DNA of 64,000 bases from assembly GCA_023205875.1 (NCBI GenBank), contig CP060763.1:434001-498000 (forward strand), in the 5' to 3' direction. The position numbers were made by a program, and so were the translations under genes. The notes beneath the pieces were generated by a model, which saw only the letters and a program-made list of their open reading frames with translations, did no database searches and had not been told where the DNA came from. This document shows, in pieces, positions 4,663 to 58,598 of the stretch (positions are counted from its first letter, which is position 1; each line of letters opens with the position of its first letter). This stretch comes from Chloropicon primus. Lineage: Eukaryota > Chlorophyta > Chloropicophyceae > Chloropicales > Chloropicaceae.

Positions 4663-5467
4663 TAAAGCGTATCCCTCTCCTGGTACTTCGCGCGACCTTT
4701 CCCAGGACTCACGGCGTCAATTCCGTCGAGCGATGCGTCAATCGAAAGATCTAGAAATCTTCTTTCGGATAGAATCCCCCCCAAGCCCTTTGCGTCTCCA
4801 CCCGACCAACACACCCTCCTCCAATGCACCTCCCTCGCCTTGGTGCCGTCACTTTCCCTCCCCTGTCCTCTCTCCCCTCGCTCGCCCCGGACCTCAATTC
4901 CGTCAACCAAGGTATCAATTGAAAGATCTCGACAAGACCTTTCGTTTCGTGTTCTTCTTTGACCTCCACGTGCCGTTCCTCGCGCGGTATCGTCCAAGAC
5001 GCTCCCCCTTTGAACCCCCAAGTGCGTCGAGGTGCTGGCTGAGTTGGCCCTTTTCTCGCGCTGACGTGCCCTGACGCTGCCCCATGCATTTTGACAATTC
5101 CGCGGAGCAGAGACGAAATCCCTTTTCCAAAAGGAGAGAGAGAGGAGAGGAGAGGAGAACCTCGGGGGGGAATCCAATCCATCACAACGACGACGAGGGA
5201 AGGGAGGGGAGTCCAAGCCAGTGACGAGGTAGATTGCTGATTAGCACATCGGAATACGCAACTTTTGCAGCCGCCGGAGGGGAGGAGGATAGACGAAACG
5301 TCACCCCACTTGACATCTTGGACAACAAACCACCCAGGAGAGTAGGTTTGGAGGAGGATAGACGAAACGTCACCCCACTTGACATCTTGGACAACAAAAC
5401 ACCCAGGAGAGTAGGTTTGCACCATCCATCACAACCACAAGAGAGGGGAGTCCAAGCCAGTGACGAG
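4663..5467. promoter_or_regulatory. Divergent promoter region of MCC alpha (-) and ARL2BP (+), with two boxes
   Basis: No convincing coding region. Two copies of the dispersed promoter box read on the plus strand, that is antisense to the MCC gene. Their GAAAG cores lie at 4743 and 4920. Both are preceded by ATTCCGTC and followed by ATCT and a short purine stretch. They lie 90 and 267 bp from the MCC ATG. The right half (5178-5467) holds duplicated DNA that leads into ARL2BP, listed separately. Confidence 0.55.
5282..5419 (+). repeat. 69-bp direct repeat, two copies, in the ARL2BP leader
   Basis: A 69-bp unit beginning GAGGAGGATAGACGAAACG occurs twice head to tail, with starts 69 bp apart at 5282 and 5351, and is nearly identical. 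Because 69 is a multiple of three, the frame that continues into ARL2BP stays open through both copies and would encode a 23-residue repeat. No ATG precedes it in that frame. A flanking segment containing GTCCAAGCCAGTGACGAG occurs both before (near 5210) and after (near 5450) the repeat, so a larger block was duplicated. Confidence 0.85.
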
Positions 5468-6067
5468 ATGGTGATGCTGCCAGAGGAGGTGGAGGGCGAG
5501 ATTTTGGCGGGAGGGGAGGAGGACCTTGTTGTGGATCAAGATCAGGACGAGAGTTTCTTCGAAGTCGTGGACAGTGGGGAGCACCAGAACGAGCAGACGA
5601 ACCTGATTGACGCCGTGGTCGGAAAGCTCGAGGAGATCTTGGTGGACGAGATCTTTGAGACCGCGAGAATGGATTTTTGCCGGAGCAACTGCGGCGTCTT
5701 CGACGAGTCTGAGGAGAACAAGCTGGAGTACACCGCCCTGTTCCGAAACTTCTCCGAGCTGGTGGAGAAGACTTTGGAGGAGAGGCTCAAGGTGGAGTTC
5801 CCGCAATTCACGGTGCCGTGGTTCGTCGACATGTTGAAGGACAAGCCCTGCGACGGCGACGTGTTCGACATGCTCTTTGGTCTCACAGACTTCCAGGAGT
5901 TTAAGGAGATGATGGTGTCCTTCAAGAAGGAGAAAGAGGTCGAATCGGGCGAGCCCTCCAAGGAGATGGCAGTCTGCAGGATGAGGATCTACTCCGAGGA
6001 GCAAGAGGATGGCGACGCGAGGCCTGACCTGGACGACTTGGCTTCTGTCGTCCCCTTGGCGAACTAA
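5468..6067 (+). CDS. ARL2BP: ARL2-binding protein (BART domain)
   Basis: Effector of the small GTPases ARL2/ARL3, linked in animals to cilia and centrosomes. The 199-residue single-exon protein has an acidic N-terminus and then a BART domain at about residues 47-160. It shows LIDAVVGKLEEILVDEIF, SEENKLEYTALFRNF, FTVPWFVDML and GDVFDMLFGLTDFQEFKEMM, matching the human protein motif for motif. I chose the ATG at 5468 because it is the first in frame; the upstream frame is open but lacks an ATG. The tail after residue 160 is acidic and not conserved with the human protein as I recall it. Confidence 0.9.
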   Translation: MVMLPEEVEGEILAGGEEDLVVDQDQDESFFEVVDSGEHQNEQTNLIDAVVGKLEEILVDEIFETARMDFCRSNCGVFDESEENKLEYTALFRNFSELVEKTLEERLKVEFPQFTVPWFVDMLKDKPCDGDVFDMLFGLTDFQEFKEMMVSFKKEKEVESGEPSKEMAVCRMRIYSEEQEDGDARPDLDDLASVVPLAN

Positions 6068-6149
6068 AGACCTGAATCTTCCTCCTCGACAACAAGAAAG
6101 CAAGAATGAGGGAGAGGGAGAGAGGGAGAGAGGGAGAGAGGGAGGTGAG

Positions 6150-6400
6150 TCCCCTCCACATTGTAAACATACGTTAGATGGTCACACCACATTGCCCTGA
6201 TGAAGCAGCATCAACATCACCACCTCAGACTTCTTCACCACCTCATAGCATAGCATCGTCTCTTCCTCTCCTTTGGGACAAGAAGAAAGGAAAAAAAGAG
6301 TGAGAGCGCGACAGCGTGAGAGAGTTGATGACGGGAGAATTCCTCCACACTGCACGCCCAGGTGGTCCCCACATTGTCCCGATCAAGCATCACTCTCACT
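6150..6400 (+). repeat. Diverged tandem duplication with a period of about 185 bp, upstream of the gene at 6556
   Basis: The gap 6068-6555 contains no gene. Two similar stretches lie about 182-189 bp apart. CCTCCACATTG near 6153 matches CCTCCACACTG near 6342, and GATGAAGCAGCATC near 6199 matches GATCAAGCATC near 6381. GA-rich simple sequence precedes each. A weak match to the promoter-box core, CTTTCGTACG, lies at 6479, which is 77 bp before the next ATG. The layout parallels the paired promoter boxes at other genes. Confidence 0.5.
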
Positions 6401-6555
6401 CACTCTCCCTCCCTCCTCCATGAGAAGGAGGAGGAGCATCTTCATTTTTTCTCTCTCTCCAGACGAAGGACGAAGGCCCTTTCGTACGTTTCGGTTTCGG
6501 TTCAGAAGGGGAAGAGGAGGACGCGCGCGGCCAAGGGACGCGAGACGGGAGGATC

Positions 6556-6760
6556 ATGTACATCATCGACGTTGTTTTGATGCTCTTGCAGCCGACGCTG
6601 TACATCTTTTGGGGAGGCTTGACGCTTGCACACTTTCAGATTCTGTATCAGTACGCGTTGCACTGGCTTACGATGGCTTCGAAGAGCGAGTACACGAGCC
6701 CGTTTGCGGTAAGTGGGGCGTCCTTCCCGGATCGACTCTGGACTCTCCACTGACGGATCC

Positions 6761-6791
<31 letters not shown>

Positions 6792-6977
6792 GCTCTGCAG
6801 GTTTACTTTCAGACGATCACGGCCAACTTGGAGAGAGTGATGGGCGCGCCGAATGCGATGAAGTTCAACTTCACTCACGTTCTCCTGGCCTCTTTGCTCA
6901 TCGCGGCCCTCGTGAGCGTGGAGAAGCTGAGGATTATCATCGACAGGAGCATCGCTATGAAGTACAAGACGCAGTGA
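6556..6977 (+). CDS. Small membrane protein of unknown function, 109 residues
   Basis: Two exons, 6556-6708 and 6801-6977, join in phase 0. The 92-bp intron has GTAAGT at the 5' end and a CT run before the 3' CAG. The protein has two hydrophobic stretches, at about residues 5-38 and 78-98. They are separated by a short soluble segment with a Lys/Ser/Glu turn, and the tail is basic. There is no signal peptide. I do not recognise the family. Length and topology would fit a small organelle or endomembrane subunit. Clean splicing and an ATG at a sensible distance from a box-like core support its being real. Confidence 0.6.
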
Positions 6978-7201
6978 AGAGCGCTTGCCTTCCGAGGGAG
7001 GGAGCGAAAGGACTGGGAAGGCAACGTCCTTTGGTGGCGTCTCGCTCGGCTTGGGTGTGAGTCCAGCGGATTCGTGACGACCCTCGAGGGCGTCGGGCCG
7101 TCTGTTCTGCAACAAGAAAGGACTCGTGTAATACAATGTACTCCAGCTGACTGGATAGGTAAAACTGCTGTACAAAAAAAACAAAACAAAACAACTTGGT
7201 T

Positions 7202-7830
7202 TTACAGAAAACCAGCGAGGGAGGACAACGTGTCTTGCCGACAGTCCTGCGTTATCGTCGCTGGGCCCAGGTAGAGGTTCATGAGCTCGCTGTTGAGGGC
7301 CTCCGAGTGGACGGCGTTCTGGCGGCGCGGCCGGAAGAGAAGGAGAAGTCAGTCAGTCAGCCTGGGGTACGGTATGGCATGTAACCCAGCAGCGGCACTC
7401 ACCTTCTTCCTGCCGTCAATGAAAGTGGTCACGGTGCCATTCTTCGACGAGAGAGTAATCACTGTTCCCTTCCTGAACTTTTCGCCCTCGAACGCCTTTG
7501 AGAAGCTCTCAAAGCACTCGCCTTCCCCCCTCCTCCTCAGAGTGTCACCAATCTGGTCGTCTGTGAACGGCGCACGCGGCGGCAAACAGAGACAAGAGAG
7601 TCGGTCAGAAACAAGTCAATAGCGTCTCCCGTGGTCACTCACCCAGAGATTTCGAAATCTGCTTCCCGGTAGCCCTTGGGAACACGACCACAAGCCGGAT
7701 CACGTTCTTCCTGTTGCCGTCCAGCACGCCCTCGAGGAGCTTCTCTGGCGTGTTCTTCTTCTTGTCGCCGAAGACTCCCTTCTTCTGACGAGCGACGTCC
7801 CCCTGGAGACGCGCGATGAAAACGACACAC

Positions 7831-7862
<32 letters not shown>

Positions 7863-8343
7863 CTCAAGTCAGCGAGGGTTCGACCATCGCGAGGGACTGG
7901 ACTGGACTGGACCTCACCTTGTTCAAGTACACCCCAACAGCATACGCCGTGATCGCTGCTATCCCCGCGAGCCTCTTCTTCCGGACTCCGACACCCGCGA
8001 GGTCCACGCAGCTTGATCCTGATCGATCCCCTGCGAGGCAAACCGCCCCCGGGAAGCTCATCCCACTCCTCGGTTCTTTCTTTCCACCCTTCTTGACCTC
8101 CCGAATCACCCCTTTGCTCGTTCTCGCCCTCTCCCCTTTCCACGGCAACGAAGGCATCTTGGACTTCAAGTTCTCGTGGAGCTGGAGGGCTAGGCTCGCG
8201 GGCTTCGTCCTCAGCCACCGCTCCCTGCCTCCCACACCCTCCTCCCCTCCTTGCCCTTCGCCCTCTCCCTCTCGACCGCCCCTTCGCCTCATCCTCTCTG
8301 ACGCGAGATCTGATCTTCCGCAGCGTGGCTTCATCTCCCTCAT
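7202..8343 (-). CDS. Chalcone-isomerase-like protein
   Basis: Four exons: 7918-8343, 7643-7802, 7403-7560 and 7202-7318, 286 residues. All donors are GTGAG-type. The joined core runs from AVCLAGDRSGSSCVDLAGVG through RKKRLAGIAAITAYAVGVYL, then LVVVFPRATGKQISKSL and a C-terminal helix HSEALNSELMNLYLGP. This is the chalcone isomerase fold, as in CHI-like and fatty-acid-binding FAP proteins of plants and algae, and the bacterial-type Chalcone_3 family. Algae lack classical flavonoid synthesis, so fatty-acid binding is the better guess. The first about 95 residues are Gly/Arg/Glu-rich with no clear targeting signal. A later start (8334, or the Met before RRRGG) is possible. Confidence 0.72.
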
Positions 8344-9768: not shown

Positions 9769-10833
9769 CGCTTCCCTTGTCCTCCCGCTCCCCTCTCCCC
9801 GCTCGAGCAAAAAACACAAAACCCTTTTCGAGAAAGATGTGGAAGAAAGGAGGCTCTCACGGCGAGAAAACGCAAGCGTCCCGTCCCGTTCCTCCGGTCC
9901 TCTGAACTCCTCGGCCGGCTCGCCTCCTCACTCCCCTCCCTTTGCCCCTCCGCGCCCCACTCTTGCAGCAATCCTGGTCCAACCCAAAGCGAGTCGAAAC
10001 AAGTTTCACACGTTCAAGGATCAGTACATCTCCATCCCGAGGTCCCTCCCCTCGAGCGAGAGCTCTTTCGAAAGAAGAGGACAAGACGCTTCGTTTGATT
10101 CGGCCACCTTTCCCTCTCGTTGCCCACTCCTCCTCCCAGTCGCCTCAGAGACTCACCCCTCGCGTTCAAGTCTCCCCTCCTGCGCCTTGATCGCGAAGAT
10201 CTCGTGGTTTGGGGGCCCTGAAAATCAAAATCCGTGGAGAGTAGAAAACACATCTAAGCGTATAACACTTATAAATACACTCTGTACACCTTTCAAGAGC
10301 CTTTCGGGGGCTCTGAAGTCCTCTCAATTATGAAAGGACTCTCCTTCTCTTTCTCTCTCTCTCTCTCTCGTTCCTCCTCCTGTCTTGTTCCTACGCCCTC
10401 GTTTTGGAAAGGTGCTTCCTTTCTCTCTTCCCTTTCCCCTCGGCGCGGAGGAGGAGTGATGTCACGTTAAGTTTCGTTTCGTCTAGTAGTCCAAGTTCCA
10501 AGCCCACTCCTGGAAGTATACTCCAAGATTAGCATCTTTCTCTTGGCTCTGTCACCGGGACCGGGACAGAGAGGGCCTCTGGACTCTCTGTGTTGCGGAG
10601 GAGGACATCGGCACGGAAAGGACGCCTATTCCACCGGAATTGGACCAGGACTCGTTCCAATCGCACTACCTCATCTCATCTTGACGACCAGAGCTCCAAC
10701 CATCAAGAGAGAGACAGAGAGAGACAGAGACCTGACCTTTGTCCAGGTCAGTCCAAGCCAAGCCAGCATGGCAGCCTAGTCCAGAAGATCTCTGCGTGCG
10801 TGCGTCGTTAGGAAGATCGACCGACATCGAGAC
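9769..10833. promoter_or_regulatory. Divergent promoter region of the PYRP2-like gene (-) and the FG-GAP gene (+)
   Basis: About 1.07 kb with no supportable gene. One clear subtype II promoter box lies at 10051-10080, with GAGCTCTTTCGAAAG and core at 10069. It reads on the plus strand, 301 bp from the PYRP2-like ATG. A weaker variant, CTTTTCGAGAAAG, lies 61 bp from that ATG. A CT run sits near 10346-10370. No box is seen near the FG-GAP gene start. Confidence 0.45.
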
Positions 10834-13486: not shown

Positions 13487-13536
13487 AGTATTGTTTTGGG
13501 AACTAGATCATTGTACAACAGCATAGAGACCTCCCC

Positions 13537-14949: not shown

Positions 14950-15691
14950 GAAACGCAGGGCTCAGGGTGCTTGCGCGATCCCTCGCGACGATCCGTGCGG
15001 AACGAACGAACCCCTCCCCGCTTCAACTCAAGCGCTGCTGTGAAGAACAGAGGAGATGAGAGAGATGGACACAGAATTGGGTTTCGAATCCTCACCAGAG
15101 CGGCACTCGCTACGACGAGACCCTCTTTCGAAAGACCGCGAGACGACGGTTCCTTCTGTCGTATGTATCCGTGCCTCACCACGTCAAGCCGTCCTCCGTT
15201 CGCGACCCAAACAACGAGGCCGAACCCAAACAAGGCGCCAGGCCTCAGGCTGATTTGTGGCCGAGATCCTCATCTTTTTTTTTGCAATCCTGGAGGAGGA
15301 AGGGGAAGGGTTGGGAGGGGACCTACCTTGGATTGGGATTGGGAATGGCTTTCATGGACGCACTCACTCTCATTGTCCTCCATCTCCATCTCGGCTTGGA
15401 TTTCATGCAGCGGCACAAGAGAGAGAGAGAGAGAGAGAGAGAGGGAAGGGAAAGGGGCCAGAGAATCTACGACCCAAGGAAGGACTCTTGCTTGCTCTCC
15501 ACTGCTTTCCATGGACCAAGAAATGAATTGAATTCCGCTTGCTTGCTTTGTAACGTTCGCGGCAGTCTCGTGTCGGCGTCGATGATGATGATGAGAAAGG
15601 ACTTGTCAGGGCAAAGACACTGAAGAGTGATGACATTTGTAACTACATTTTGCTTATACAGCTTGCTTGCTCTACCCTAAACTCTCCCACC
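14950..15691. promoter_or_regulatory. 5' flank of the aminotransferase gene, with one promoter box
   Basis: About 740 bp without a supportable gene. One box at 15123-15155 reads on the plus strand (CTCTTTCGAAAGACCGCGAG, core 15129), 180 bp from the aminotransferase ATG and antisense to it. A GA run at 15419-15442 and a CATGGA-rich patch follow. The right end is the 3' flank of the HARE-HTH gene. Confidence 0.45.
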
Positions 15692-17161
15692 TCACTCTTC
15701 CTGCTTGACCTTGACAATGGAAGGGGCCGTCTTGCTTCGTCTTCTCTTCGAAGGACGAGGAGCCTTGCAGAGCCCGACCTCTTCGAGGTATTCTCTCTTC
15801 ACAATGCATTGTTCCTTGTCGCTCAGCATAAGAGATGCGTCCGCAAAGATGATCCTCAACGCCTCGTTGTAGTCCGCGATCTCTCTCTTCTTCTCCGGGG
15901 ACTTGCTGTCGTAACGCTGGGCCTCCTGCACGGCTTCGGCGTACTCCTCCTCCGTCATCAGGCCGGACTCGAGAGCCTCTCTCAAATCCAAAGCATAGGG
16001 AGAAGGAGAAGGAGATCTCGTCGTCTTCATGTTGTTGGTGGTGGTGGCGTTGGAATTCTGCTCATTGAGGTTGTCGGCGGATGATTGATTCAAGTATTCC
16101 TTGGCAATTGCATATATTCCGCGTTCAGTGCGAACAAAGCGGGGGCTCTGTGCACAAGCAGATCTGACAGTTTTCCGCATTCTCTTCGGATCAGTACAGA
16201 CAGAACCATCTTTTCGCTTGAACACATACAACTTCTTGGCCCGGATCCGACCAAAGATCTCCTTCACGTGCAAGCTCCCTCCCGCATCTTGAAGAACGCG
16301 GTAGATGGCATCCCGAAGTGGTGAGGTGCTGACAGCACCTTGAGTATTGGACCCATTCAAGTATTTCTTGGCAATGGCATATATTCCACGTTCAGTGCGA
16401 ACAAAGCGGGGGCTCTGTGCACAAGCAGATCTGACAGTTTTCCGCATTCTCTTCGGATCAGTACAGACAGAACCATCTTTTCGCTTGAACACATACAACT
16501 TCTTGGCCCGGATCCGACCAAAGATCTCCTTCACGTGCAAGCTCCCTCCCGCATCTTGAAGAACGCGGTAGATGGCATTCCGAAGCGGTGAGGTGCTGAC
16601 AGCATCTTGAGTATTGAACCCATTCAAGTATTCCTTGGCAATGGCATATGTTCCATGTGCAGTGCGAACAAAGAAGGGGCTCTGTGTACAAGCAGCACTG
16701 ACACAGTCCCGCATTCTCTTCAGATCAGTAGAAACAGAACCATCCATACGCTTGAAAACATACAATTTCTTCGCCTGGATCCGGCCAAGGATCTCTTTGA
16801 CACGCAAGCTCTCTCCCGCTTCTTGAAGAACGAGATAGACGGCAGTCACAAGAGTTCTCTTTCCATTGCGAGTCCTGAAAGGACGTGCGTTGTCTCTCAT
16901 CATAGTCACCTGCGCTGTCTCAGGTTGGCAGGACGAATCCGCACCACCACTATCCTCCTCACTGTCGCTCTCCTCTTCGATGATCGTCGTAGAGCCCGTC
17001 GAGAAGCTCGCCAAATACTCTCCGTCCACGTCCATGTCCATGGCACCTGGGGACAACCCTCCCTTGTCGTCATCACCACCGGCGACGGCCCTCGCCGCCG
17101 CGATCATCGCCGCCGTCGACCTGGTGCGTGTCCAGCGTCTCTGTCTCGTGGGACGCCTCAT
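15692..17161 (-). CDS. Nuclear protein with three tandem HARE-HTH domains
   Basis: Single exon, 489 residues. Three copies of an 89-residue winged-helix unit sit at about residues 104-192, 193-281 and 282-368. Each shows an AIYRVLQDAGGSLHVKEI-type helix pair, then RIRAKKLYVFKRKDGSV, a turn with DPKRMRK, and FVRTERGIYAIAKKYLN. The pattern is that of the HARE-HTH domain (ASXL proteins, RNA polymerase delta, restriction factors), which is thought to bind DNA or sense chromatin. Before it lies an acidic Ser/Glu stretch and after it a basic nuclear-localisation-like stretch (PSKRRRSKTAP). The protein ends in VKVKQEE, which contains a SUMO-type VKQE site. The start is the ATG at 17161; the 10 residues upstream in frame lack an ATG. 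Confidence 0.78.
   Translation of the reverse strand: MRRPTRQRRWTRTRSTAAMIAAARAVAGGDDDKGGLSPGAMDMDVDGEYLASFSTGSTTIIEEESDSEEDSGGADSSCQPETAQVTMMRDNARPFRTRNGKRTLVTAVYLVLQEAGESLRVKEILGRIQAKKLYVFKRMDGSVSTDLKRMRDCVSAACTQSPFFVRTAHGTYAIAKEYLNGFNTQDAVSTSPLRNAIYRVLQDAGGSLHVKEIFGRIRAKKLYVFKRKDGSVCTDPKRMRKTVRSACAQSPRFVRTERGIYAIAKKYLNGSNTQGAVSTSPLRDAIYRVLQDAGGSLHVKEIFGRIRAKKLYVFKRKDGSVCTDPKRMRKTVRSACAQSPRFVRTERGIYAIAKEYLNQSSADNLNEQNSNATTTNNMKTTRSPSPSPYALDLREALESGLMTEEEYAEAVQEAQRYDSKSPEKKREIADYNEALRIIFADASLMLSDKEQCIVKREYLEEVGLCKAPRPSKRRRSKTAPSIVKVKQEE
16084..16885 (-). repeat. Three in-frame 267-bp repeats inside the HARE-HTH gene
   Basis: Equivalent positions recur exactly 267 bp apart, for example the ATTCAAGTATT block at 16087, 16354 and 16621. 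By eye, the copy encoding domain 3 and the copy encoding domain 2 differ at only about seven of 267 bases. The copy encoding domain 1 is clearly more diverged. This implies a recent duplication or gene conversion of the last two units. Confidence 0.92.
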
Positions 17162-17740
17162 GATGAAATACAACACCGCACAACACTGCACAGCTCCACG
17201 AAGACTGCCCTTCTCTTCCTCTTCACGAACCGAGCCAACAACTCACAAAACAAACTTCGAGGCAGCGTCCTCCTGTAACGCCTGTCGTAGCAAAGAGAGC
17301 GAGCGAGCGAGAGGGCCACTCCTCTTCGTCAAAACCTTCAGCCGAGGTATCAATCGAAAGCCCTTGAGACGCGCTTCCGTTCTTTCAACACCTCCTCCCC
17401 TTCGCCGTCCCCGTCCGTGCACAAAGTCCTCGACAAACAAAGCCCCTCTGCCCCGGTGACCCGCCGACAAATCGAGAGAGCGTTATGAACCCTCAATTCC
17501 ATTTTCCGTTTCCCTTGTGTTGGGAGGAGGGTTTCGACAGACAGACGATTGGAAAGCAAAGCGTCTGCGTTGGACAAAGGGAGCGGGACGGAGGGGTGGG
17601 GGAGGGTGGCAAGCGAAGCTACGCACCGAGGCCTTCCGATTGATACCCTGGTTTGAAGCGTTTCGACCTTTCGGTGCGAGAAAGAGAGAGAGGGATTGGT
17701 GTGGTGTGGTGTCAGCTTGACTTGAGAGAGGGGGGACGGG
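17162..17740. promoter_or_regulatory. Divergent promoter region, HARE-HTH gene (-) and V-ATPase d (+), with facing boxes
   Basis: No gene in about 580 bp. Two subtype I boxes face each other. One reads on the plus strand (GAGGTATCAATCGAAAG, core 17355), 194 bp from the HARE-HTH ATG. One reads on the minus strand (CTTCCGATTGATACCCTGG, from 17633), 108 bp from the V-ATPase ATG. Each is antisense to the gene it adjoins. Confidence 0.55.
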
Positions 17741-20341: not shown

Positions 20342-20929
20342 TCAGTCGATTACATCCTCCAAAGGACGCCATTCCTCTCGATCGAGGGCTCTTTCGAAAG
20401 ATCGCGAGACGGTGCTTCCGCCTGTTGCGTCCACACTCTTCGCCTCCCTCCCCCTCGCACGCCCTACCCGCCGTTCACTCACCTCTTCGCCTCGCCGAGC
20501 CCAAGCCACGAACTAGCAGCCACTGATGAGAGCTCTTGGCGAGTGATCGATCGAGTCGAGTGATCGAGTGAGTGCGAGTTGTTTTGGACGGAATTGCGGA
20601 CGGTAAACGGAACGAGGGGCGGCGAAGGTGTGGACCACGCGAAATCACGTCTCGCGGGCTTTCTGTCGGTACCTTGGTTGACCCGTGGAGTGGAAGAGAG
20701 CGAGAGGGAGACTCTGTCATTCCTCGAGCAACTACCTGGCGGCGATTGAAAGGGAAAGGGTCGACTTGGAGCGCGACTTTGAGAAGGTTAGCGACGGAGG
20801 CGAGGAGCTAGAGTTGCGTCAAACGAAAGATCATTTCACGGTCTTTCTGTCGGTACCTTGGTTGACTCGTTTCGACGGAGAGAGGCATCCGTTCGAGGTT
20901 TGTGTGTGTCTGTGTGAAAGCCAACGAGC
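20342..20929. promoter_or_regulatory. Divergent promoter region of NAD kinase (-) and mitochondrial S18 (+), with three boxes
   Basis: No gene. A subtype II box reads on the plus strand at 20379-20420 (GGGCTCTTTCGAAAGATCG, core 20395), 54 bp from the NAD kinase ATG. Two subtype I boxes read on the minus strand, each with CTTTCTGTCGGTACCTTGG, at 20659 and 20843. These are 271 and 87 bp from the S18 ATG. Sequence before the two S18 boxes is also loosely similar, as if a unit of about 184 bp had been duplicated. Confidence 0.6.
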
Positions 20930-21280: not shown

Positions 21281-21318
<38 letters not shown>

Positions 21319-27085: not shown

Positions 27086-28297
27086 GATGCCTTAAAAGCA
27101 CTCTTCACTTCCTCTCTTGACACGAGTACAGGTTCTCTGGCTTGCTTATGTTTCACTTCAGGTCTTCTTCAAGTCTTGTTGTTGTTCGCTTCGAGGGCAA
27201 AAGCAAACGCACACAGACACACACGAGGACCAAAGCCAGGTGCTTCACGCAAGCAAGGTCGTCACCATCGGTTGTCCTCGTGTCCAAAGACGCTTCAAAC
27301 CCAAACCCACACCCCCCGTCGAGAGCCCGAGAGAACTTGGGAGTATACTCGAAAAAGTATCCGATGGGCTCGCAGAATCCTCTTCCCTCAAAACCTAACA
27401 ACCTTTTACGATCTTTCCCTTCGGTTCACGAGCGACAGTTGCCTTAAGGACAAGCAAGAGGATCCTTTTCCCCAACCCCAAAGGTTCAAGACTCGTTCTT
27501 CTTGGCTTTCCTTTCCTTTGCTTTCCTTCGCTTTGCTTTGCTTCGGTTCACGAGCGACAGTTGCCTTAAGGACAAGCAAGAGGATCCTTTTCCCCAACCC
27601 CAAAGGTTCAAGACTCGTTCTTCTTGGCTTTCCTTTCCTTTGCTTTCCTTCGCTTTGCTTTGCTTCGGTTCACGAGCGACAGTTGCCTTAAGGACAAGCA
27701 AGAGGATCCTTTTCCCCAACCCCAAAGGTTCAAGACTCGTTCTTCTTGGCTTTCCTTTCCTTTGCTTTCCTTCGCTTTGCTTTGCTTCGGTTCACGAGCG
27801 ACAGTTGCCTTAAGGACAAGCAAGAGGATCCTTTTCCCCAACCCCAAAGGCTCAAGACTCGTTCTTCTTCTTCTTGTGTCTTGTGTCTTGTTCTTCTGTC
27901 GTCGCCTTGGTGTCCTTGTGTCCTTGTCCTTGTCCTTTCGTGTTCGTGTTTCCGACTCCATTCAGACATACGCAGCAGCAGCAGGAGGAGGGGAAGCACG
28001 AGACCGAGCCCGGAGAGACCAGACCGTTGGTGTGGGGAAGAGTTTGGACAGTCGGTTGTGTCCAACGGTCCAAGAGGAGGGGAAAGAACCAAGAGGCAAG
28101 GATGAGATAAGACCACCAAGAGCCGAGCCAGGCCCTGTGTGTGTGTGTGTGAACCGACTGGGACCGCCGTGCTTTGTGTTCGTTGCCGTGGCCTTGGGAA
28201 GAAGAAGAAAGAAACCAAGAGACCTTGGCCAAGAGACCTTGGCCTTTGGGTTGTCGGGAGACCTGAAGAGGTTGTTGTGAACCTTTGGAGCAAAGAG
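27086..28297. other. Divergent gap, CCDC13-like (-) and PH protein (+)
   Basis: About 1.2 kb. It holds the four-copy 122-bp repeat (27423-27870), CTTGT-rich simple sequence near 27870-27950 and a (GT)n stretch at 28137-28151. The frames open through it owe their length to the repeat. No promoter box of the family is seen. Confidence 0.5.
27423..27870 (+). repeat. 122-bp tandem repeat, about 3.7 copies
   Basis: Unit starts at 27423, 27545, 27667 and 27789, each beginning GGTTCACGAGCGACAGTTGC, spaced exactly 122 bp. The copies look almost identical. The last copy diverges after about 80 bp into TTC and CTTGT repeats. The unit contains CTTTCCTTTGCTTTCC-type pyrimidine stretches and a BamHI-like GGATCC. 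As 122 is not a multiple of three, it is not a protein repeat. It sits about 430-870 bp upstream of the PH-protein ATG. Confidence 0.95.
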
Positions 28298-31274: not shown

Positions 31275-32215
31275 GCCGCTGCTGTTCAGTAGACAACGCC
31301 AACAGAGGAAGAAGAAAACAAATAAGAACGAGTCAAGCGAGGGATCCAATCGAAAGAGAAAGGTACGAGGTTTCGGTGTCCTCCTCCCCTCCTGCCCTCG
31401 CCCTCGTCCTCCACAAGAGTGTGCTGCTGCTCCTCCCTCGCTTGCCTTGCTTCACGAGATCCAGCACAATTGGTTGGTTCGTTCGTTCGTTCCAGTCTTC
31501 CCGATCACTCAGGACGCCACTCGGGTCGATCAAGGTATCGACGGAAAGACCGTGAGACGTACTACCGACACCCCTCGCCCTCCTTCCCTCCTTCCCTCGC
31601 CCTCGTCCTCCCCTTGGCTCCACAAAAGGTTACGTTCCTCCTCTCTCGCTCGCGCTCGACTCCCCGACTTTTTCCTTCTCTCGCGTTGTGGACGCTGTAC
31701 ACGCCATTCTCGTCAAGATCTGGTTACACCCAATTCTAGCCAAAGATCTGATCTGTTTCAAACACGTGCGGTTGTCGTAACGCTTCGTCGGTTACGGCTG
31801 GTCGAGACAGAATTGAGAGCAAGGCCGAGGCGATTGCGTTCCCTTTCCCTTTCGAAAGGCAGGCTTCTTCGGACGTGCGACGTGTTGCGAGGAGTGAGGG
31901 GTTTGGAGACCTCCCTGTGTCGTGTCTTTGGCTTGGCTTTGGATTGAGGGGTCGCACCGAGGGGGAGGATCCGTGGGGAGGCCGTGGACCGAGCACAAGG
32001 CCAGAGGGCGGAGAAGGGTTGAGTCGAGGGACGGGGGGAGAGGACTGGGGTGTGTGGCGTTTGGAAGCTCGCCTTTTGTCTGCGCTCGCATCTGTCTTTT
32101 CTTTGGGCATTCTTGTTGGAGTGATCGCGGATCGAGATCCGCGAGAAGTCGGGCGTGACCGGGCACAAGGCTGCGGGGGAGAGGGAAGGTTGGTCGGTTC
32201 GGTCGGTTCGGCGAG
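31275..32215. promoter_or_regulatory. Divergent promoter region of PRP4 kinase (-) and the RETICULATA gene (+)
   Basis: About 940 bp without a supportable gene. Two subtype I boxes read on the plus strand, with cores at 31351 (GGGATCCAATCGAAAGAG) and 31542 (CAAGGTATCGACGGAAAGAC). They are 77 and 268 bp from the PRP4 ATG. A CTTTCGAAAGG core at about 31849 lies 365 bp before the RETICULATA ATG. A 9-bp perfect inverted repeat around GA (32125-32144) lies about 72-91 bp before the same ATG. Confidence 0.55.
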
Positions 32216-37761: not shown

Positions 37762-37826
<65 letters not shown>

Positions 37827-38157
37827 GAGTGTTGAACGAGGGAGGAGAGGGAGGTGAGGAGCACGGTACGGGAATCTTCACGTTCTGGTCTTTCGAAAGA
37901 GCCCTCGCTCGAAAGATTTGGTGGAGGCATTGGTTTGTAGGACAAAAAACTGACACGAAGAGGAACACTTTCTGCTTGCAGCAGAGGAGGAGGAGAGGGA
38001 GAGAGGGAGAGAGGGAGACGGACGGGTGCTTGAGAGGAAGGACAGAGGAGGAATCGAGACTCTACGCGTCGCTCTCTTTCGATTGACGCCAAAAATAGGG
38101 TTTCGTTTGGGGGTGAGGAGTGGCATTCAGTCCGAATATCGATTGATCCAGAAGAAG
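37730..38157. promoter_or_regulatory. Divergent promoter region of the unknown gene (-) and prolidase (+), with two boxes
   Basis: Two boxes read on the minus strand. The subtype II core CTTTCGAAAGAGCCCTCGC is at 37890, and the subtype I core CTTTCGATTGACGCC is at 38076. They lie 268 and 82 bp before the prolidase ATG. No gene is present. Confidence 0.55.
37764..37824 (+). repeat. GA microsatellite, about 60 bp
   Basis: Nearly pure GA run. On the minus strand it is a CT tract directly before a CTGCAG acceptor-like site, in the presumed 5' UTR intron of the five-exon gene. It is the longest dinucleotide run I see in the window. Confidence 0.92.
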
Positions 38158-49503: not shown

Positions 49504-50246
49504 GACTCCCTTCCTCGAGGAGTGGTTCCCCTCAACCACTTCCTGCGCCGGGCGACCCCGTATGAAGTGAAATGAAGTGAAGTGAAGTGAAGTGTCCTTT
49601 CACAGGCTCTCAGCAGCTTGCAACTTTTGTCCACCTTTCTGGCCACTCAGAACGTCAGTGTCGACAAATGAGGGATCACACGAAAGATCTCGAGACCTAG
49701 TTTTGTGTTATGATAATGCTCGCTCGTGATTGTGCCCCTCTCGTCGTCCACCTCCTCGTCGTCGGTCCTTCCTGCTGGCCTTGAGCTGCTCCGAGGTGCA
49801 GGGATCCCAGGGACAATCTCCATCGAATCGAAATGGTCGAGCAAAGGCGGTGGCTGCAGGAGCAAGGTGGTGAGTCATCGATTGGTCCAGGTGCCAACGA
49901 CGAGGAATGAGACCGAGCAGGAGGTCGTCACAATCGTTGTCGTCGTCTCAAGCTCTTTCGAAAGTGCCCGGACTTGAAAGGAATGACGTGATGGTGAGGA
50001 TTGGGTCGAAGCCTAATACCCCTGTTTCCTTTGTTTGATTGGACGAGCAGTGTGTTGTAGGCGAGAGAAGGAGGCGAGAGAAGGAAGCAAGTCGCCGGCA
50101 TCGTCCACGTGCAAGGCATTTGCATCTGGGTGAGCTGCGAGGAGAGTCCCTGCCGCACAAGGAGGCGTGGAAGTATGCAGGTCCGGCGGTGATTGAAGAG
50201 GGAAGGGAACAGACAATATCAGTCGGTGCGAGGACTACTGAACGCC
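49504..50246. promoter_or_regulatory. Divergent promoter region of canopy (-) and the GT29 gene (+), with two boxes
   Basis: About 740 bp without a gene. One box reads on the plus strand (CGAAAGATCTCGAGACC, core 49681), 178 bp from the canopy ATG. One reads on the minus strand (AGCTCTTTCGAAAGTGCCC, core 49964), 283 bp from the GT29 ATG. A GTGAA/ATGAA pentamer run lies at 49564-49593. Confidence 0.5.
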
Positions 50247-51923
50247 ATGGACATGGATTCGAGGAAGGAGATGGAGGAGCGGATCAAGATCCTGGAGGAT
50301 GCGGTGAGAAAGTCGAATGAGGAAGGCAAAGCGAGGTGGTCCTCCATGCTGAAGGTTGCAGCGGTCTGTGTCGTTCTCATCATCATTGTCCTGATACTCC
50401 TAGGTCCGCTCCTGCCAGCGGTGTACACCTTGGAGTATGTCGCCAAGGGAGGCGCATTCAAAGACCAAGGGGTGGTTCCCGGTGCAGCAGCAAAGATGCC
50501 AGGGAGTGGTCATGGGTCCCCACCGGCGGAAGCGTCCCCGCCACTGGTGGAGCCACAACCTGCGCCACCGAAGAAGGGCGGCAAGCGCAAGGGAGGGAAG
50601 GCGAAGGCGAGCCAGGTGGCTGGCTCGGCAGAAACTCGAGGCGGTCCTGCCAATGCACAGAAGGAGGCGGCCATCGGTGGGGGAGACGGTGGAGCTGGTG
50701 ATTCCGCAAAGCCAGCGCCTGAGCTCAAAGAGGGCCAGCAGGAGGAGGTCAGTGACCGCCTGAAGCAACAAAGGGAAGTTTGCCTCGGTGCCCCATACCC
50801 GGTGATCTTCGGAGACGGCGGAGCGACGAGAGATATCGCGTTCAAGGCGTACGCCAGCACGAGGAGCTCGAGGGGCTACTTGAGAAACAACAAGCTCGAT
50901 CCGGTCTTGGTCGCCGTGGAGAACGAGAAGAAGGGGGGAGGCAGGGGGTTGCAGGGAAAGGCAGACAGCTTGCCCCTGAGGCCATTCTGCGGCAGGAGAA
51001 GGAGGCCGGTCACGGGGAATTTGGAGGAGCTCACCGAGTGCCTCATGACCCCGGACAAGTGCACGCCTGCCAAGCAGGCCAACGCCACGGTGCAGCTGAA
51101 CAAGGTCAGCGCGATCAAGCAGTACCTTCCGCAGAAGGGGCTCCCCAAGTGCCTCACCGTGAACAAGGCTTGCGGGGTGAGGCCGAGAGACTTGACGTCG
51201 GCGAAGGAGAGCGGCAAAAAGATCGGACCCAAGGCGGGGGAGAGGATAGTGAGGAAGCAGCCCGACGAGGACATCAGCAGAAGCATGAAGACGTGCGCCA
51301 TCGTCGCCAACGGCCCTGGCTTGTACGCGGGGGGGATCGGGGAGGCCATTGATGCCCACGACGTAGTCATCAAGATGAACCTGTACCACCTCGGGCAGCG
51401 GCCCGGGAAGTTCCAGGAGCTGGACAAGAGCGCCAGCCTCTACTCGGGGACGAAGAGCTCGATCCGGATGTTCAACGCCAAGAGGGCGGAGGACGCCCTC
51501 AAGTACACGATGATGCCCTCTGCGAACGAGACTTGGATCTACTGGCACTACAGGACGGCAATGTCGCTCGACGCGCTGATCAAGGTGAACCCCAACTCGA
51601 GGTTCTTGTCCCCGCAGCACTTGGACCGCATGATCGAGCTCTACTTTGCGTTCAGGACTCTGGTGATCCAAATCGCGAAAATCAGGAGGACCAAGTGCCC
51701 GATCAACCTGTCCACCGGCATCCACTCCGTCCTCACGTACATCCACACCTGCGACCGAGTCAACCTTTTCGGCTTCAGCACGAGGTGGAGCGACATGACC
51801 GGGAGGGGCAGAAGGGACGAGGTCATCAGCTCGAGAATGAGCAGGTCCCACGACTGGAACGTGGACGTCATGATCCTCAACCTGCTGGCCATCTCCGGCA
51901 AGATCAACTTCTGCACGCAGTGA
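50247..51923 (+). CDS. Sialyltransferase-like glycosyltransferase, family GT29
   Basis: Type II Golgi protein, single exon, 558 residues. A short cytosolic coiled segment (KEMEERIKILEDAVRKSNEE) is followed by one TM helix (VAAVCVVLIIIVLILLGPLL), a Pro/Lys/Gly-rich stem and the catalytic domain. Sialylmotif L is seen as CAIVANGPGLYAGGIGEAID then AHDVVIKMNLY. Motif S is seen as INLSTGIHSVLTYIHTCDRV then NLFGFST. A VS-type His lies in RSHDWNVDVMI. The donor need not be sialic acid; plant members of GT29 appear to use other donors such as Kdo. I start at ATG 50247. Confidence 0.87.
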   Translation: MDMDSRKEMEERIKILEDAVRKSNEEGKARWSSMLKVAAVCVVLIIIVLILLGPLLPAVYTLEYVAKGGAFKDQGVVPGAAAKMPGSGHGSPPAEASPPLVEPQPAPPKKGGKRKGGKAKASQVAGSAETRGGPANAQKEAAIGGGDGGAGDSAKPAPELKEGQQEEVSDRLKQQREVCLGAPYPVIFGDGGATRDIAFKAYASTRSSRGYLRNNKLDPVLVAVENEKKGGGRGLQGKADSLPLRPFCGRRRRPVTGNLEELTECLMTPDKCTPAKQANATVQLNKVSAIKQYLPQKGLPKCLTVNKACGVRPRDLTSAKESGKKIGPKAGERIVRKQPDEDISRSMKTCAIVANGPGLYAGGIGEAIDAHDVVIKMNLYHLGQRPGKFQELDKSASLYSGTKSSIRMFNAKRAEDALKYTMMPSANETWIYWHYRTAMSLDALIKVNPNSRFLSPQHLDRMIELYFAFRTLVIQIAKIRRTKCPINLSTGIHSVLTYIHTCDRVNLFGFSTRWSDMTGRGRRDEVISSRMSRSHDWNVDVMILNLLAISGKINFCTQ

Positions 51924-53093: not shown

Positions 53094-53178
53094 AGCAAGG
53101 AACTTATAAAATATACGGCAAATACATTACATAATAGATTGGTGGTACACACTGTTGAACAAGATAATTTCACATCGT

Positions 53179-55656: not shown

Positions 55657-56126
55657 CCAAGAGTGACGACTCCCCTCTCTCTCTCTCTTGAGGCGACCCT
55701 TTGCTCTTTCTCTTCTGGTGGATTTCTCCCTTCCGCTGAATCATAACGGGCGAGCACGAGGGCGAACGAGCACGAGAGAGAGAGAAAAGAAGAGGACGGG
55801 AACGCGCAGCGGAGAAAGAGGGAGAGACAGGGGACAGGTCAGACAGAAGTGTCGCACCTTGCGCTTTCGAAAGAGCCGTCGCTCGAAAGAAACAACGCAG
55901 TGGTGAGGATCTGAGGACGCGAAACGGGACAGAGGCAGAAAGAGATCGAGGAGTAGATCACCGAGGAAGGGAGGCGACTACGAGGGCAGGAGTTTGTGCC
56001 GGACGTTTCTCTCTGGTGACGCGCTGACGAAATGATTGTCTCTCGCTCATTCGAACGAGCCCTCGCGCGACAAGAAGGACCCAGTGGTGGGGATCATCTG
56101 AGGAGCACGGACACAAGGACGTGAAG
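55657..56126. promoter_or_regulatory. Orphan pair of promoter boxes between the REV1 and MFS genes
   Basis: Between the REV1 start and the MFS stop, two boxes read on the minus strand: GCGCTTTCGAAAGAGCCGTC (core 55864) and a relative, CTCATTCGAACGAGCCCTCG (core 56048), 184 bp apart. Flanks are duplicated too: CAGTGGTGAGGATCTGAGGA near 55898 matches CAGTGGTGGGGATC and CTGAGGAGCACGG near 56081. Minus-reading boxes elsewhere precede plus-strand genes, yet the annotated neighbours here are both minus-strand. They point at the ATG at 56127. Confidence 0.5.
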
Positions 56127-56219
56127 ATGGCGGTGACAAGGAGAGCGAGAAAGAGGCAGACGATTGAGCCCAAAGACGCGCTGATAGTATTACAGTTACG
56201 ATGTTTCGGAAAAACTTAA
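56127..56219 (+). CDS. Possible small ORF downstream of an orphan promoter pair
   Basis: A 30-codon frame begins MAVTRRARKRQTIEPKDALI and ends with LRCFGKT, closing 8 bp before the MFS stop on the other strand. Its ATG is 79 and 263 bp from the two boxes, the same distances as in five recognised genes. The composition is reminiscent of a histone-fold helix with a basic start, but this is too short to assign. It may be a true micro-gene, the first exon of something lost, or chance. Confidence 0.25.
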   Translation: MAVTRRARKRQTIEPKDALIVLQLRCFGKT

Positions 56220-56227
56220 AACTTTTA

Positions 56228-58133
56228 TTACAATTGTTTGAAAGCCTTTGGAAGGGGCTTGAGCAGCAAACAGCACACTGCACCCACGCAGGAAATGAGG
56301 CACGCCAGAATGTTATAGAAAAAGTTCTCTCCCGTGAGCTTGTTCAAGAAAGGCAGGAGATTTGGAAAAACCAATGCCGATGCCGCCGTGGACGTCAGGA
56401 TCAACCCGTACACCTGGCCCGAGTTGATAGGGGCGAAGAGCTCCCTCGACAACGCGGCAATCAGGACATTGCAACCGCCAAAGATAACCACGATGACCGT
56501 GATGAGAAAGAGAGAGAGGTACTCGTCCGTCACAAAAGCACTCGCCAGGAGGCCAGCCATCTGAACGCAGTGAAATAGAAGAAAGAGCGACCTGCTGCCA
56601 GATCCGAAGATCTTCCATTGAGACATGTTCCACCTGTCTGCAATGTACCCGGCAGGCAGGCGACCAAAAATTGTTGCTATCAGATTCACGAGGATGACCC
56701 AGTTTGCCGCAACCCTTTTTGGCATACCAAGGCTAGTCGTGAATATTCCACCCAAATTCGCAAAGAGGGCGTACCCTGGGCCCACTGCAGTAAAAGCTGA
56801 GACCCAGAAAAGGGCGAACTCAGATGACTTAACAATCTCCCCCGCGGTGAGCTCGATCCCCAGGCCGCTCCTTGTGGATGAATCAAGCTTGCTCCGATGG
56901 GAGACCAGCAAGTCTTTTGTGTGTCCCGAGCTCAGGTCTGGCATCTTCAAGAACAAGCCTCCACCTGCCTGCAGCCCAAAGAGGGTCAGTGACAGGATCG
57001 TCAATGACGAATAGATGCCGTACTTGTCGATGCAGACCTCGATCATCGTCGCCATGGCCACCGACCCAAGCCCACCAAACGCCATCCCAATGGAGGATGC
57101 CAGCGCCGGACTTTTTGGTAGCCAGAACTGCATGTGAATAATGGCAGACAGGAACGATGGGCCGACCCCAAAGCCCGTCAGAGCGAAGCTCAGTTGGAGC
57201 AGCCACGCCTCGTCACCACGCAGGGCAGCCGTGGATAGCAACAAGGCCAAAACTAAAGGTGATGTGAGCAGCACCGACACTCTGGGACCCTCGACATACT
57301 TCATGAGAAAGGAACCATGAAAGATGCAGCCGAGCGTGAAAGAACAGATGAACAGGCTTATGGCGGACGCCACTGTGTTCTGGCCCAGGTGTTTCAGGTG
57401 AGGCATGAACTGGCTGAGGGCATACTGCACGCCGTTGCTCGACACAACAACGCAGGAAGCAGCAACCCTCAGCCACTTTGCATCCTTTACCTTGGAGGGC
57501 AAAGGAGGTTCCGGAGGATACAGCGGCTGCCTCTCCATCACGGTTGCCACGCTGGAGAGCAAGCTGGTATTCAAGTTCCCCGTCGTCGAGGTAGCCTGGG
57601 AGAACAGCAACGTCGAACCGCCGTCAAAGTCCTCCTCGTCGTCGTCTCCAAACAATACAGACCCCTCCGTGAAACTCTCTCTCCGACCAAGCCCAGCAAA
57701 AAGCGCGTCCCTTTCCTGATCCTCCCCGTCGCTGTCCACGCCGCCCAATATCTCAAGCCTCCGCTGCAACGTCCGCTTCCTGCGAGGACCACCACACGAT
57801 GAACCCAAACGAGAACCAGCTCCATCCGAGGGTCAGAGAGAGCACGAAGCGAGCGAGGTCGAAGTCGACGACGGGCGAGACCGCGCAAGCGGCGAGGACA
57901 AACAACCCAAAAGCTGTTGACCCGCGAAGAGGCCCCTCCTCCTCCTCCTTCGTGGTCCGTTCCAACACGAAACGTAACGCATCCTTGGGTACCAAAAACC
58001 ATCCATCGCCGCAGAAAAGAGAACCGGACGACGAACGACGCAACGATCGCGTCGAGGATTCAGCGTCATTGCGTTGTGAGAAAGGACTCGATCCTTACCT
58101 GAAGATGTGCGGCAACCCTTCCGTCAAGCTCAT
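56228..58133 (-). CDS. Major facilitator superfamily transporter
   Basis: Exons 58099-58133 (35 bp) and 56228-57779 join in phase 2, 528 residues. After a polar N-terminus of about 120 residues with an acidic DGEDQERD and DDDEEDFDGG stretch come about twelve TM helices. Examples are VRVAASCVVVSSNGVQYALS-type TM1, ISLFICSFTLGCIFHGSFLM, VSVLLTSPLVLALLLS, LSFALTGFGVGPSFLSAII and IFGRLPAGYIADRWN. The pattern suggests an oxalate/formate- or nodulin-like MFS clade; the substrate cannot be predicted. The main ORF lacks an ATG before residue 90 of the exon, so the tiny first exon is needed. It is inferred from an ATG, a GTAAGG donor and matching phase. Confidence 0.75.
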
Positions 58134-58598
58134 AGGCTCGACCTGACCGAGGGTTTGGCTTCCTTCCAGCCTCTCCTCTCCTCTGCCGCTTTCTGCTGAT
58201 TACGAAAAGGTTTTCACAACAGACGGGGAGGAGATCCGCGTGGGGCGGGAAGGAACAACGTGGCGACGGTAGAGGAGAGGAGGAGAGGAGGAGGAGGACC
58301 TTCAGACGGAAGCTTCGTCTCGCGAGCTTTCCATTGGTACCTTGGTTGAAGGCATTGGCAAAGGAATGACTGAGGAGGCGCCGTCTGAACGAGATTGATT
58401 CCTTAAGAGGGAAGTCAGGAGGAGTGGAAAGCAATCAGCGAGGAAGTTGACGACGGCGACGACAGAGGGAGGTTTGAAATACAGGATCGTCGGACGGAAG
58501 CTTTGTCTCGCGAGCTTTCGATTGGTGCCTTGGTTGACGAGAGGAAAGAGGGGGTGAAGCAGAGATGAGCAGCTCGAGCACATCATAAAGGCTTGTTG
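58134..58598. promoter_or_regulatory. Divergent promoter region of MFS (-) and OXA1-like (+), with two boxes
   Basis: Two subtype I boxes read on the minus strand, each with GTCTCGCGAGCTTTC, then ATTGGTACCTTGGTTGA or ATTGGTGCCTTGGTTGA. Cores are at 58327 and 58515, 188 bp apart, and 272 and 84 bp from the OXA1-like ATG. The bases before each box (GGACGGAAGCTT or AGACGGAAGCTT) also match, so a longer stretch was duplicated. Confidence 0.65.

What the first reader, a model, noticed from the sequence alone, without database searches (positions are those of the whole stretch)
4720..58530. A dispersed 45-bp box in 5' flanks that always reads antisense to the gene it precedes
About 20 copies lie in this window. 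Subtype I reads TCAACCAAGGTATCAATCG then AAAG; subtype II reads CGAGGGCTCTTTCGAAAG. Both then share a GCGAGAC and GCTTCCG tail. Core positions: plus-reading 4743, 4920, 10069, 15129, 17355, 20395, 31351, 31542, 49681; minus-reading 17633, 20659, 20843, 37890, 38076, 49964, 55864, 56048, 58327, 58515. The core near 31849 is ambiguous in orientation. Every plus-reading copy sits 5' of a minus-strand gene and every minus-reading copy 5' of a plus-strand gene, apart from the orphan pair near 56 kb. I found none in exons, introns or convergent 3' gaps. Genes served range from MCC to PRP4 kinase, so this looks like a general promoter element, with no match I know.
Basis: partly seen in the sequence, partly recalled or inferred. 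Interest (0 to 1): 0.88.

Follow-up and report, generated by a model that had tools for sequence, protein, structure and literature searches.

The report
Nucleosome-spaced directional promoter box in Chloropicon
A tiny marine green alga carries some two thousand copies of a 41-letter DNA signal upstream of genes, nearly always pointing the same way relative to the gene and, where repeated, at steps of about 179 letters, close to the size of a DNA packaging unit; the copies are unevenly spread over its chromosomes.

Summary
The box is real. The core is about 41 bp. Genome-wide one pattern finds 1,332 places against 0 for its reversed control; I estimate 2,000-2,700 copies. In the window 0 of 20 lie in coding segments or in the 11 convergent gaps; 17 lie in 9 of 11 divergent gaps. 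Orientation holds for 13 of 14 groups here and 30 of 33 assignable groups elsewhere. New: among 527 listed sites, same-strand neighbours are 169-193 bp apart in 47 of 48 gaps (mean 178.7), also where the flanking DNA has diverged to shuffled level; adjacent opposite-strand neighbours within 1 kb are tail-to-tail in 26 of 27. It is not general: 0 copies in 220 kb sampled elsewhere, and 80% of listed sites fall in about 0.5 Mb of C1, C2 and C4 (C3 not clearly). Best reading (inferred): a directional site for an unknown DNA-binding protein that sits in linkers and phases promoter nucleosomes. Two cases of promoter-limited copying suggest spread by ectopic recombination. I had no nucleosome, TSS or binding data.

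The parts
4726..4766 (+). box, 92 bp from ATG of MCC-alpha-like gene (2614-4653 -)
   Evidence: PWM; ATG
4903..4943 (+). box, distal copy, 177 bp further out
10052..10092 (+). box, 303 bp from ATG of HAD-hydrolase gene (-)
15112..15152 (+). box, 182 bp from ATG of aminotransferase gene (-)
17338..17378 (+). box, 196 bp from ATG of HARE-HTH gene (-)
17615..17655 (-). box, 105 bp from ATG of V-ATPase AC39 gene (+); tail-to-tail with 17357 at 279 bp
20378..20418 (+). box, 56 bp from ATG of NAD kinase gene (-)
20641..20681 (-). box, distal copy for S18 gene; tail-to-tail with 20397 at 265 bp
20825..20865 (-). box, 84 bp from ATG of ribosomal S18 gene (+)
31334..31374 (+). box, 79 bp from ATG of protein kinase gene (-)
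31526..31566 (+). box, distal copy, 192 bp further out
37872..37912 (-). box, distal copy for M24 peptidase gene (+)
38058..38098 (-). box, degenerate proximal copy (leave-one-out score 10.5)
49664..49704 (+). box, 180 bp from ATG of DUF3456 gene (-)
49937..49977 (-). box, 289 bp from ATG of GT29 gene (+); tail-to-tail with 49683 at 275 bp
55846..55886 (-). orphan box: between two minus genes (REV1-like and MFS), head towards the 3' end of the MFS gene
56030..56070 (-). orphan box, 184 bp from the previous
58309..58349 (-). box, distal copy, 188 bp further out
58497..58537 (-). box, 81 bp from ATG of Oxa1/Alb3-like TPR gene (+)

Best explanation
Each box is the asymmetric recognition site of an unidentified DNA-binding protein (or complex) of C. 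primus. Its head points to the gene it serves, most often 56-117 bp before the predicted ATG, and extra copies stand further out in steps of about 179 bp, each leaving about 138 bp between conserved cores. The protein would occupy linkers, act as a barrier that phases the upstream nucleosomes and keeps the promoter open, and by its asymmetry give the promoter direction; at divergent promoters two arrays face tail-to-tail across a central stretch of about 225 bp. Shown: the motif, its orientation, the spacing, and that box and spacing persist in pairs whose flanks have diverged. Inferred: that a protein binds, that nucleosomes lie between boxes, and any effect on transcription.
For: High information content (about 43 bits over -25..+25, 57 sites, not corrected for sample size). 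Same-strand neighbours within 250 bp among 527 listed sites: 47 of 48 gaps, in 41 arrays, at 169-193 bp (mean of 48: 178.7, SD 6.2). Adjacent opposite-strand neighbours within 1 kb: 26 of 27 tail-to-tail, 18 of these at 252-300, 6 at 444-483, 2 at 545-565. In four of six window pairs and in L034, L041 and L043 the 125 bp on the tail side of the two boxes are no more alike than shuffled sequence (z 1.7 or less), e.g. 58330/58518 with 89% box identity, 62% against 60% shuffled. Orientation 13 of 14 groups in the window and 30 of 33 assignable elsewhere. First in-frame ATG at 56-117 bp from the nearest box in 20 of 41 genes (6 of 11 in the window; 14 of 30 elsewhere). Precedent for a sequence-bound protein as barrier from which remodelers space nucleosomes: Reb1 in yeast (PMC8163753, abstract and section headings seen).
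Against: No nucleosome, TSS, expression or binding data for this organism were available. Some arrays are recent tandem duplicates (C16, C18, C1 loci), so part of the period is duplication of a unit; two of six window pairs and L026, L036 keep some flank likeness (z 2.6-5.6), and the orphan pair does on the head side (z 3.7). Exceptions to the step: 157 bp on C8 and 151 bp in L034. One heads-facing pair, C3 at 1251105/1251307, 202 bp. The tail-to-tail distance is not a whole multiple of 179. Three of 33 groups outside and one of 14 inside break the orientation rule; 11 of 44 groups outside had no callable gene, and some head-side genes are far (up to 2.4 kb). The ATG distance is spread in the other 21 of 41 genes: 8 at 127-196, 7 at 259-332, 5 at 403-2035 and one ATG 36 bp on the far side of the box; the rule of taking the most upstream in-frame ATG favours short distances. 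ATGs are not clearly depleted between box and start codon (5.0 against 6.5 per kb), so the TSS could not be located. The nucleosome repeat length of C. primus is not known to me.
Confidence: 0.48

Rival explanations
1. Ordinary upstream activating or core-promoter site for a transcription factor; the ~179-bp repeats come only from tandem duplication of a promoter unit of that length, without a nucleosome role.
For: Fixed orientation to the gene and the frequent 56-117 bp to the ATG suit a core-promoter element; several arrays are recent duplicates (C16 array of seven).
Against: In four of six window pairs and in L034, L041 and L043 the tail-side flanks are at shuffled-level identity, yet the spacing is 177-188 apart from one 151-bp gap. 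Separate arrays share one period (41 arrays, SD 6.2); unconstrained indels should have spread it.
Confidence: 0.24
2. A spreading sequence: boxes are copied between promoters by ectopic gene conversion or a transposition-like process, biased to nearby or nuclear-clustered regions, with function secondary or absent.
For: On C10, two places 5.76 kb apart share 246 bp (98.8%), starting at the box head and ending 44 bp past the second AAAG; on C17 two promoters share 301 bp (98.3%); the 60-70 bp read beyond these edges show no likeness. Uneven chromosomal distribution.
Against: Orientation to genes, absence from the 11 convergent gaps of the window, and persistence of the box where flanks have decayed need selection or an extraordinary insertion rule. 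No target-site duplication was evident at the edges read, though I did not search systematically.
Confidence: 0.15
3. Promoter or 5' part of an antisense or divergent noncoding RNA that runs upstream from each gene.
For: The box reads antisense to the gene, and the orphan pair (55867/56051) and L027 have no coding gene in the expected direction on the head side.
Against: No Rfam match at gathering score and no tRNA in the window. No conserved transcript-like body beyond the core: the flank is mainly pyrimidine-rich. The CTTTCGAAAG palindrome of subtype II is absent from subtype I, so no common hairpin there. Tail-to-tail RNAs would collide in a short space.
Confidence: 0.08

Closest known systems
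General regulatory factor / barrier sites that phase nucleosomes (yeast Reb1, Abf1, Rap1)
   Same: Promoter sites for a sequence-specific protein; arrays of nucleosomes are aligned to them (PMC8163753, abstract and headings); such factors can restrict divergent transcription (PMC9481977, start of abstract).
   Different: Here the site is about 41 bp, has one orientation to the gene and is itself repeated at about nucleosome spacing; unevenly spread over the genome. No protein known. Yeast details beyond the abstracts are recalled.
CENP-B box in ~171-bp alpha satellite (recalled)
   Same: A short conserved protein-binding box repeated once per nucleosome-length unit; one array here (C16) has seven units of ~170 bp.
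   Different: Here the boxes are in gene promoters, mostly single or paired, oriented to genes; the units between boxes are often unrelated.
CTCF-type insulator sites (recalled)
   Same: Long, asymmetric, orientation-bearing site; facing pairs.
   Different: Facing distance here is mostly 252-300 bp, not long-range; location is close to gene starts; no zinc-finger protein identified.
Introner elements of prasinophytes (PMC9860276 listing and start of abstract seen; nucleosome-sized length recalled)
   Same: Many dispersed copies, nucleosome-sized step, picoalgal genomes.
   Different: In the window boxes are not within predicted coding genes, and they have no conserved full-length body.
Plant pyrimidine-patch / GA core promoter elements (recalled)
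   Same: The box flank is pyrimidine-rich on the box strand.
   Different: The box itself is a complex sequence, not a composition patch.

Membership tests
Nucleosome-phasing barrier site (GRF site) | recurrent sequence-specific motif in promoters | tested here: met
Nucleosome-phasing barrier site (GRF site) | nucleosomes phased from the site in vivo | not testable with these tools
   no MNase or ATAC data; only the ~179-bp step is suggestive
Nucleosome-phasing barrier site (GRF site) | bound by an identified protein | not testable with these tools
   no binding data
CENP-B box satellite | long head-to-tail arrays of homologous units | tested here: not met
   48 gaps in 41 arrays among 527 listed sites, so most listed copies are single or paired; flanks often at shuffled-level identity
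CENP-B box satellite | location at centromeres | not testable with these tools
   no centromere map; one reverse-transcriptase match only, so no retroelement cluster as marker
Dispersed transposable element / MITE | conserved full-length body or terminal repeats | tested here: not met
   outside about -19..+21 only composition bias and a weak A run at -26..-24 remain; inverted repeats were not searched systematically
Dispersed transposable element / MITE | insertion in either orientation to genes | tested here: not met
   13 of 14 and 30 of 33 groups in one orientation
Structured RNA gene | match to a known RNA family | tested here: not met
   Rfam gathering search and ARAGORN of the window: 0 matches
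Introner element | lies within introns of coding genes | tested here: not met
   0 of 20 in coding segments merged over gaps under 250 bp; 1 of 70 in a weak coding segment elsewhere; introns in 5' UTRs not excluded
Core promoter element | fixed distance to the TSS | tested here: inconclusive
   TSS unknown; first in-frame ATG at 56-117 bp in 20 of 41 genes, spread in the rest

The most novel reading that the evidence does not exclude
The genome writes its promoter nucleosome array into DNA: a directional 41-bp site repeated once per nucleosome defines promoter position and polarity in one class of chromosomal domain, roughly half a megabase on large chromosomes and perhaps centred on the centromere, while the rest of the genome uses shorter box-less promoters. 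The lattice spreads and is kept uniform by gene conversion between promoters that meet in the nucleus. That would be a domain-specific, DNA-encoded chromatin code for promoters.
Probability: 0.2. Interest if true: 0.9.

Novelty: new variant of a known kind. Interest (0 to 1): 0.72.

Why it matters
Whether nucleosome positions at promoters are encoded in DNA or imposed by proteins and remodelers is a long-standing question. A site repeated at a nearly constant ~179 bp, kept in pairs whose flanks have decayed, and tied in orientation to the gene, would be a natural ruler on which that question can be tested. The uneven chromosomal distribution also suggests two classes of promoter architecture within one small genome, and gives a handle on possible centromere or nuclear-domain structure in Chloropicon, whose two genome papers do not use the words promoter or nucleosome (word counts 0) or centromere in the held main texts.

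Tried and rejected
Search for the motif strings in papers: 72 papers hold one, 20 listed, titles and abstract starts seen; none of the 20 concerns such a promoter element; the other 52 were not seen. Viral contigs: 0 exact matches to the 23-mer and 11 to a shorter pattern. The best full-box PWM scores among those 119 and 11 loci were 21.7 and 18.3, below most real boxes. Alternative box in box-free regions: after a low-complexity filter, no 11-mer with more than four occurrences in the C1 or C2 noncoding samples. Reverse-transcriptase clusters as centromere markers: one match only. GC3 difference between window and C1/C2 is not consistent (p 0.67 and 0.0096; both together 0.08). ATG depletion to locate the TSS: inconclusive. 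Distal boxes score higher than proximal ones in 17 of 23 pairs (p 0.035; hand-entered scores), not used as a main argument. My first ATG-distance count (19 of 30) used 11 of 13 obeying window groups and 19 hand-picked groups of 30 outside, and allowed for the latter only ATGs on the gene side of the box; redone on all 30 outside groups without that limit it is 14 of 30 there, 20 of 41 with the window; taking instead the ATG nearest the coding segment, 12 of 30 lie at 38-130 bp. My first lattice count (41 of 41 and 18 of 18) had no exception; adding the lists brought in one 157-bp gap and one heads-facing pair; two palindromic places read on both strands (C1 937478/937497, C2 807306/807325) were dropped before that count. 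The block idea was tested on newly listed sites: 19 of 35 fell in blocks fixed beforehand that cover 32% of C1-C4 (p 0.005), but an earlier small test gave 5 of 7 (p 0.09), C2 alone gave 5 of 11 and C3 1 of 4, and C3 is not clearly uneven in the later lists (KS p 0.24). 'One block per chromosome' is a tendency, clear on C1, C2 and C4 only; on 13 of the 14 contigs C7-C20 the departure from uniform was not significant. Three divergent gaps of 1 bp in the C2 sample were dropped before the gap-length test.
Full report
ORGANISM. The window lies at C10:434001-498000 of a genome of 17,584,162 bases in 20 contigs. The longest contig is 1,855,637 bases. These numbers equal those given for Chloropicon primus strain RCC138 in Table 1 of PMC12301720 (passages seen), a picoplanktonic green alga (Chloropicophyceae).

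THE BOX. A position weight matrix from the listed sites finds 20 copies in the window. Left-out scores are 20.9-48.0 for 19 of 20; the best hit in three order-2 Markov shuffles (one each of the window, C1 and C2 samples) was 16.8. Site 38079 scores 10.5 when left out and rests partly on its position. Across 57 sites from the window and fetched loci the conserved core spans about -19 to +21 around the AAAG, with about 43 bits over -25..+25, uncorrected for sample size. Consensus: TCAAgCGAGGtaTCAATCGAAAGAtCg.GAgACGA.gtTTC. The two subtypes are real but hybrids exist.

GENOME-WIDE NUMBER. A 35-place pattern with up to three mismatches finds 1,332 places (676 forward, 656 reverse) and 0 for the reversed pattern; a 23-place pattern finds 1,343, control 3. 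The first pattern catches 15 of 20 window copies, 44 of 65 boxes in loci L025-L048 and 10 of the 20 of these that no search had listed. From the last two rates I estimate 2,000-2,700 copies.

PLACE AND ORIENTATION. With a codon-usage segment predictor trained on long ORFs, the window has 0 of 20 copies in coding segments (39.8 kb) or in 11 convergent gaps, 17 in 9 of 11 divergent gaps and 3 in 2 of 8 tandem gaps. Pfam matches support the strand of the served genes named in the parts list. In 13 of 14 groups the head of the box faces the 5' end of the nearest gene; the exception is the pair at 55867/56051 between a REV1-like and an MFS gene, both on the minus strand. Outside the window, 44 groups in 27 loci were examined: 30 of 33 assignable groups obey, 3 do not (L027; L035 with a weak gene call; one group in L044 beside a weak minus-strand call), and 11 had no callable gene. 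Some obeying genes are far from the box (up to 2.4 kb), and groups in duplicated stretches (L044, L047, L048) are not independent. Nineteen of these loci were fetched around listed sites before their sequence was seen.

THE LATTICE. From 752 listed entries (527 distinct sites in eight searches, six of whose lists were capped at 100 places) same-strand neighbours within 250 bp lie 169-193 bp apart in 47 of 48 gaps, the other being 157; 41 arrays, mean 178.7, SD 6.2. Larger same-strand distances up to 1 kb are mostly about two to five times this, one being 650. Adjacent opposite-strand neighbours within 1 kb are tail-to-tail in 26 of 27: 18 at 252-300, 6 at 444-483, 2 at 545-565; one pair on C3 (1251105/1251307) faces head to head (after dropping two palindromic places read on both strands). 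In the window and fetched loci, which overlap these lists, same-strand steps are 169-193 with one of 151, and tail-to-tail distances are 240-279 (6), 344-359 (3) and 452 (1).

DISTANCE TO THE ATG. Taking the first in-frame ATG after the last in-frame stop, the AAAG of the nearest box lies 56-117 bp before it in 20 of 41 genes (6 of 11 in the window; 14 of 30 elsewhere), 127-196 in 8, 259-332 in 7, 403-2035 in 5, and in one the ATG lies 36 bp on the other side. That rule favours short distances. The distal window copies at 4922, 20662, 31545 and 58330 lie 268-271 bp from the ATG, so the 259-332 class fits promoters that keep only a distal copy; this is an inference.

CONSERVATION. In several pairs the 125 bp on the tail side of the two boxes are no more alike than shuffled sequence although the boxes are alike and the step is kept: 58330/58518 (box 89%, flank 62% against 60% shuffled), 20662/20846 (79%; 63% against 60%), 4745/4922 (68%; 59% against 58%), 55867/56051 (64%; 62% against 60%, though its head side keeps some likeness, z 3.7). 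Others (31353/31545, 37893/38079, L026, L036) show weak remaining likeness, and the C16, C18 and C1 arrays are recent tandem duplicates. This is the main evidence that both the box and its spacing are under selection.

COPYING BETWEEN PROMOTERS. Two places on C10, 5.76 kb apart, share 246 bp at 98.8%; the shared stretch starts at the box head and ends 44 bp past the AAAG of the second box, and the 60-70 bp read beyond each edge show no likeness. On C17 two promoters share 301 bp at 98.3%, likewise. A divergent promoter on C8 recurs 2.4 kb away at 77% over 658 aligned bp. This suggests ectopic gene conversion or short duplication limited to promoters.

UNEVEN DISTRIBUTION. The 200 kb sampled on C1 and C2 (200-300 kb of each) hold none, where the genome mean would give about 15 by the less sensitive pattern; 10 kb each at 1.0 Mb of C3 and C4, chosen as predicted box-free, hold none. 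Combining the earlier lists, copies depart from uniform on each of C1-C6 (KS p from 7e-6 to 0.03), not on 13 of the 14 contigs C7-C20, and 2 of 346 lie within 30 kb of a chromosome end where 25.5 are expected. In two later lists complete for C1-C4, 80% of sites fall in 549 kb of C1 (1.86 Mb), 532 kb of C2 and 481 kb of C4; C3 is not clearly uneven there (p 0.24). Of 35 newly listed sites, 19 lie in blocks fixed beforehand that make up 32% of C1-C4 (p 0.005); a smaller earlier test gave 5 of 7 (p 0.09). An arbitrary 11-mer shows no such preference (8 of 15 on C1-C6, p 0.30). Divergent gaps are longer in the window (median 976 bp, 11) than in the C1 and C2 samples (465, 17; 512, 21), p 1e-4 after dropping three 1-bp gaps; this compares one region with two.

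INTERPRETATION. The period of ~179 bp leaves ~138 bp between conserved cores, close to one nucleosome core. In prasinophytes DNA marks are arrayed between nucleosomes (PMC12695648, passages seen, for Micromonas and Ostreococcus). I therefore propose that an unknown protein binds boxes in linkers and phases promoter nucleosomes, with asymmetry giving direction. That step is inferred. The tail-to-tail distance of ~265 bp is not a whole multiple of the step, so the centre of a divergent promoter must be organised differently, perhaps as a wide nucleosome-poor region.

WHAT IS KNOWN. The two Chloropicon genome papers use neither promoter nor nucleosome nor centromere in the held main texts. Searches for the motif strings (20 of 72 papers listed) and for Chloropicon with promoter, motif and transcription start (one work, on Auxenochlorella, listing seen) showed no description. 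I know of no described element with this combination, but most subscription papers are not in that library.

Noticed in passing
window 27419-27869: Tandem repeat of a 122-bp unit, 3.7 copies at 99%, in a divergent gap that has no box.
   Followed up: no
window 16088-16844: Tandem repeat of a 267-bp unit, 2.8 copies at 91%, inside the coding segment of the HARE-HTH gene.
   Followed up: no
window 5281-5419: 69-bp direct repeat, two copies at 98%, in the 5' flank of the plus gene whose first ATG is at 5468.
   Followed up: no
window 50247-51920: Glycosyltransferase family 29 (sialyltransferase-like) gene; PMC6731263 mentions 59 sialyltransferase genes in this species.
   Followed up: no
L040 (C16:317601-320600): Array of seven boxes at ~170 bp; in five of six neighbour comparisons the 125 bp beside the boxes are 85-100% identical (80% in the sixth): a young tandem expansion of a promoter.
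   Followed up: partly
L047 (C13:81801-86800): Three tandem units of about 1.4-1.6 kb: second and third 94% identical, first and second 70%; each has one minus-reading box, and a plus-reading box stands before the first.
   Followed up: no
own genome G000: Only one reverse-transcriptase (PF00078) match found in the whole genome, at C6:907829-907978.
   Followed up: no
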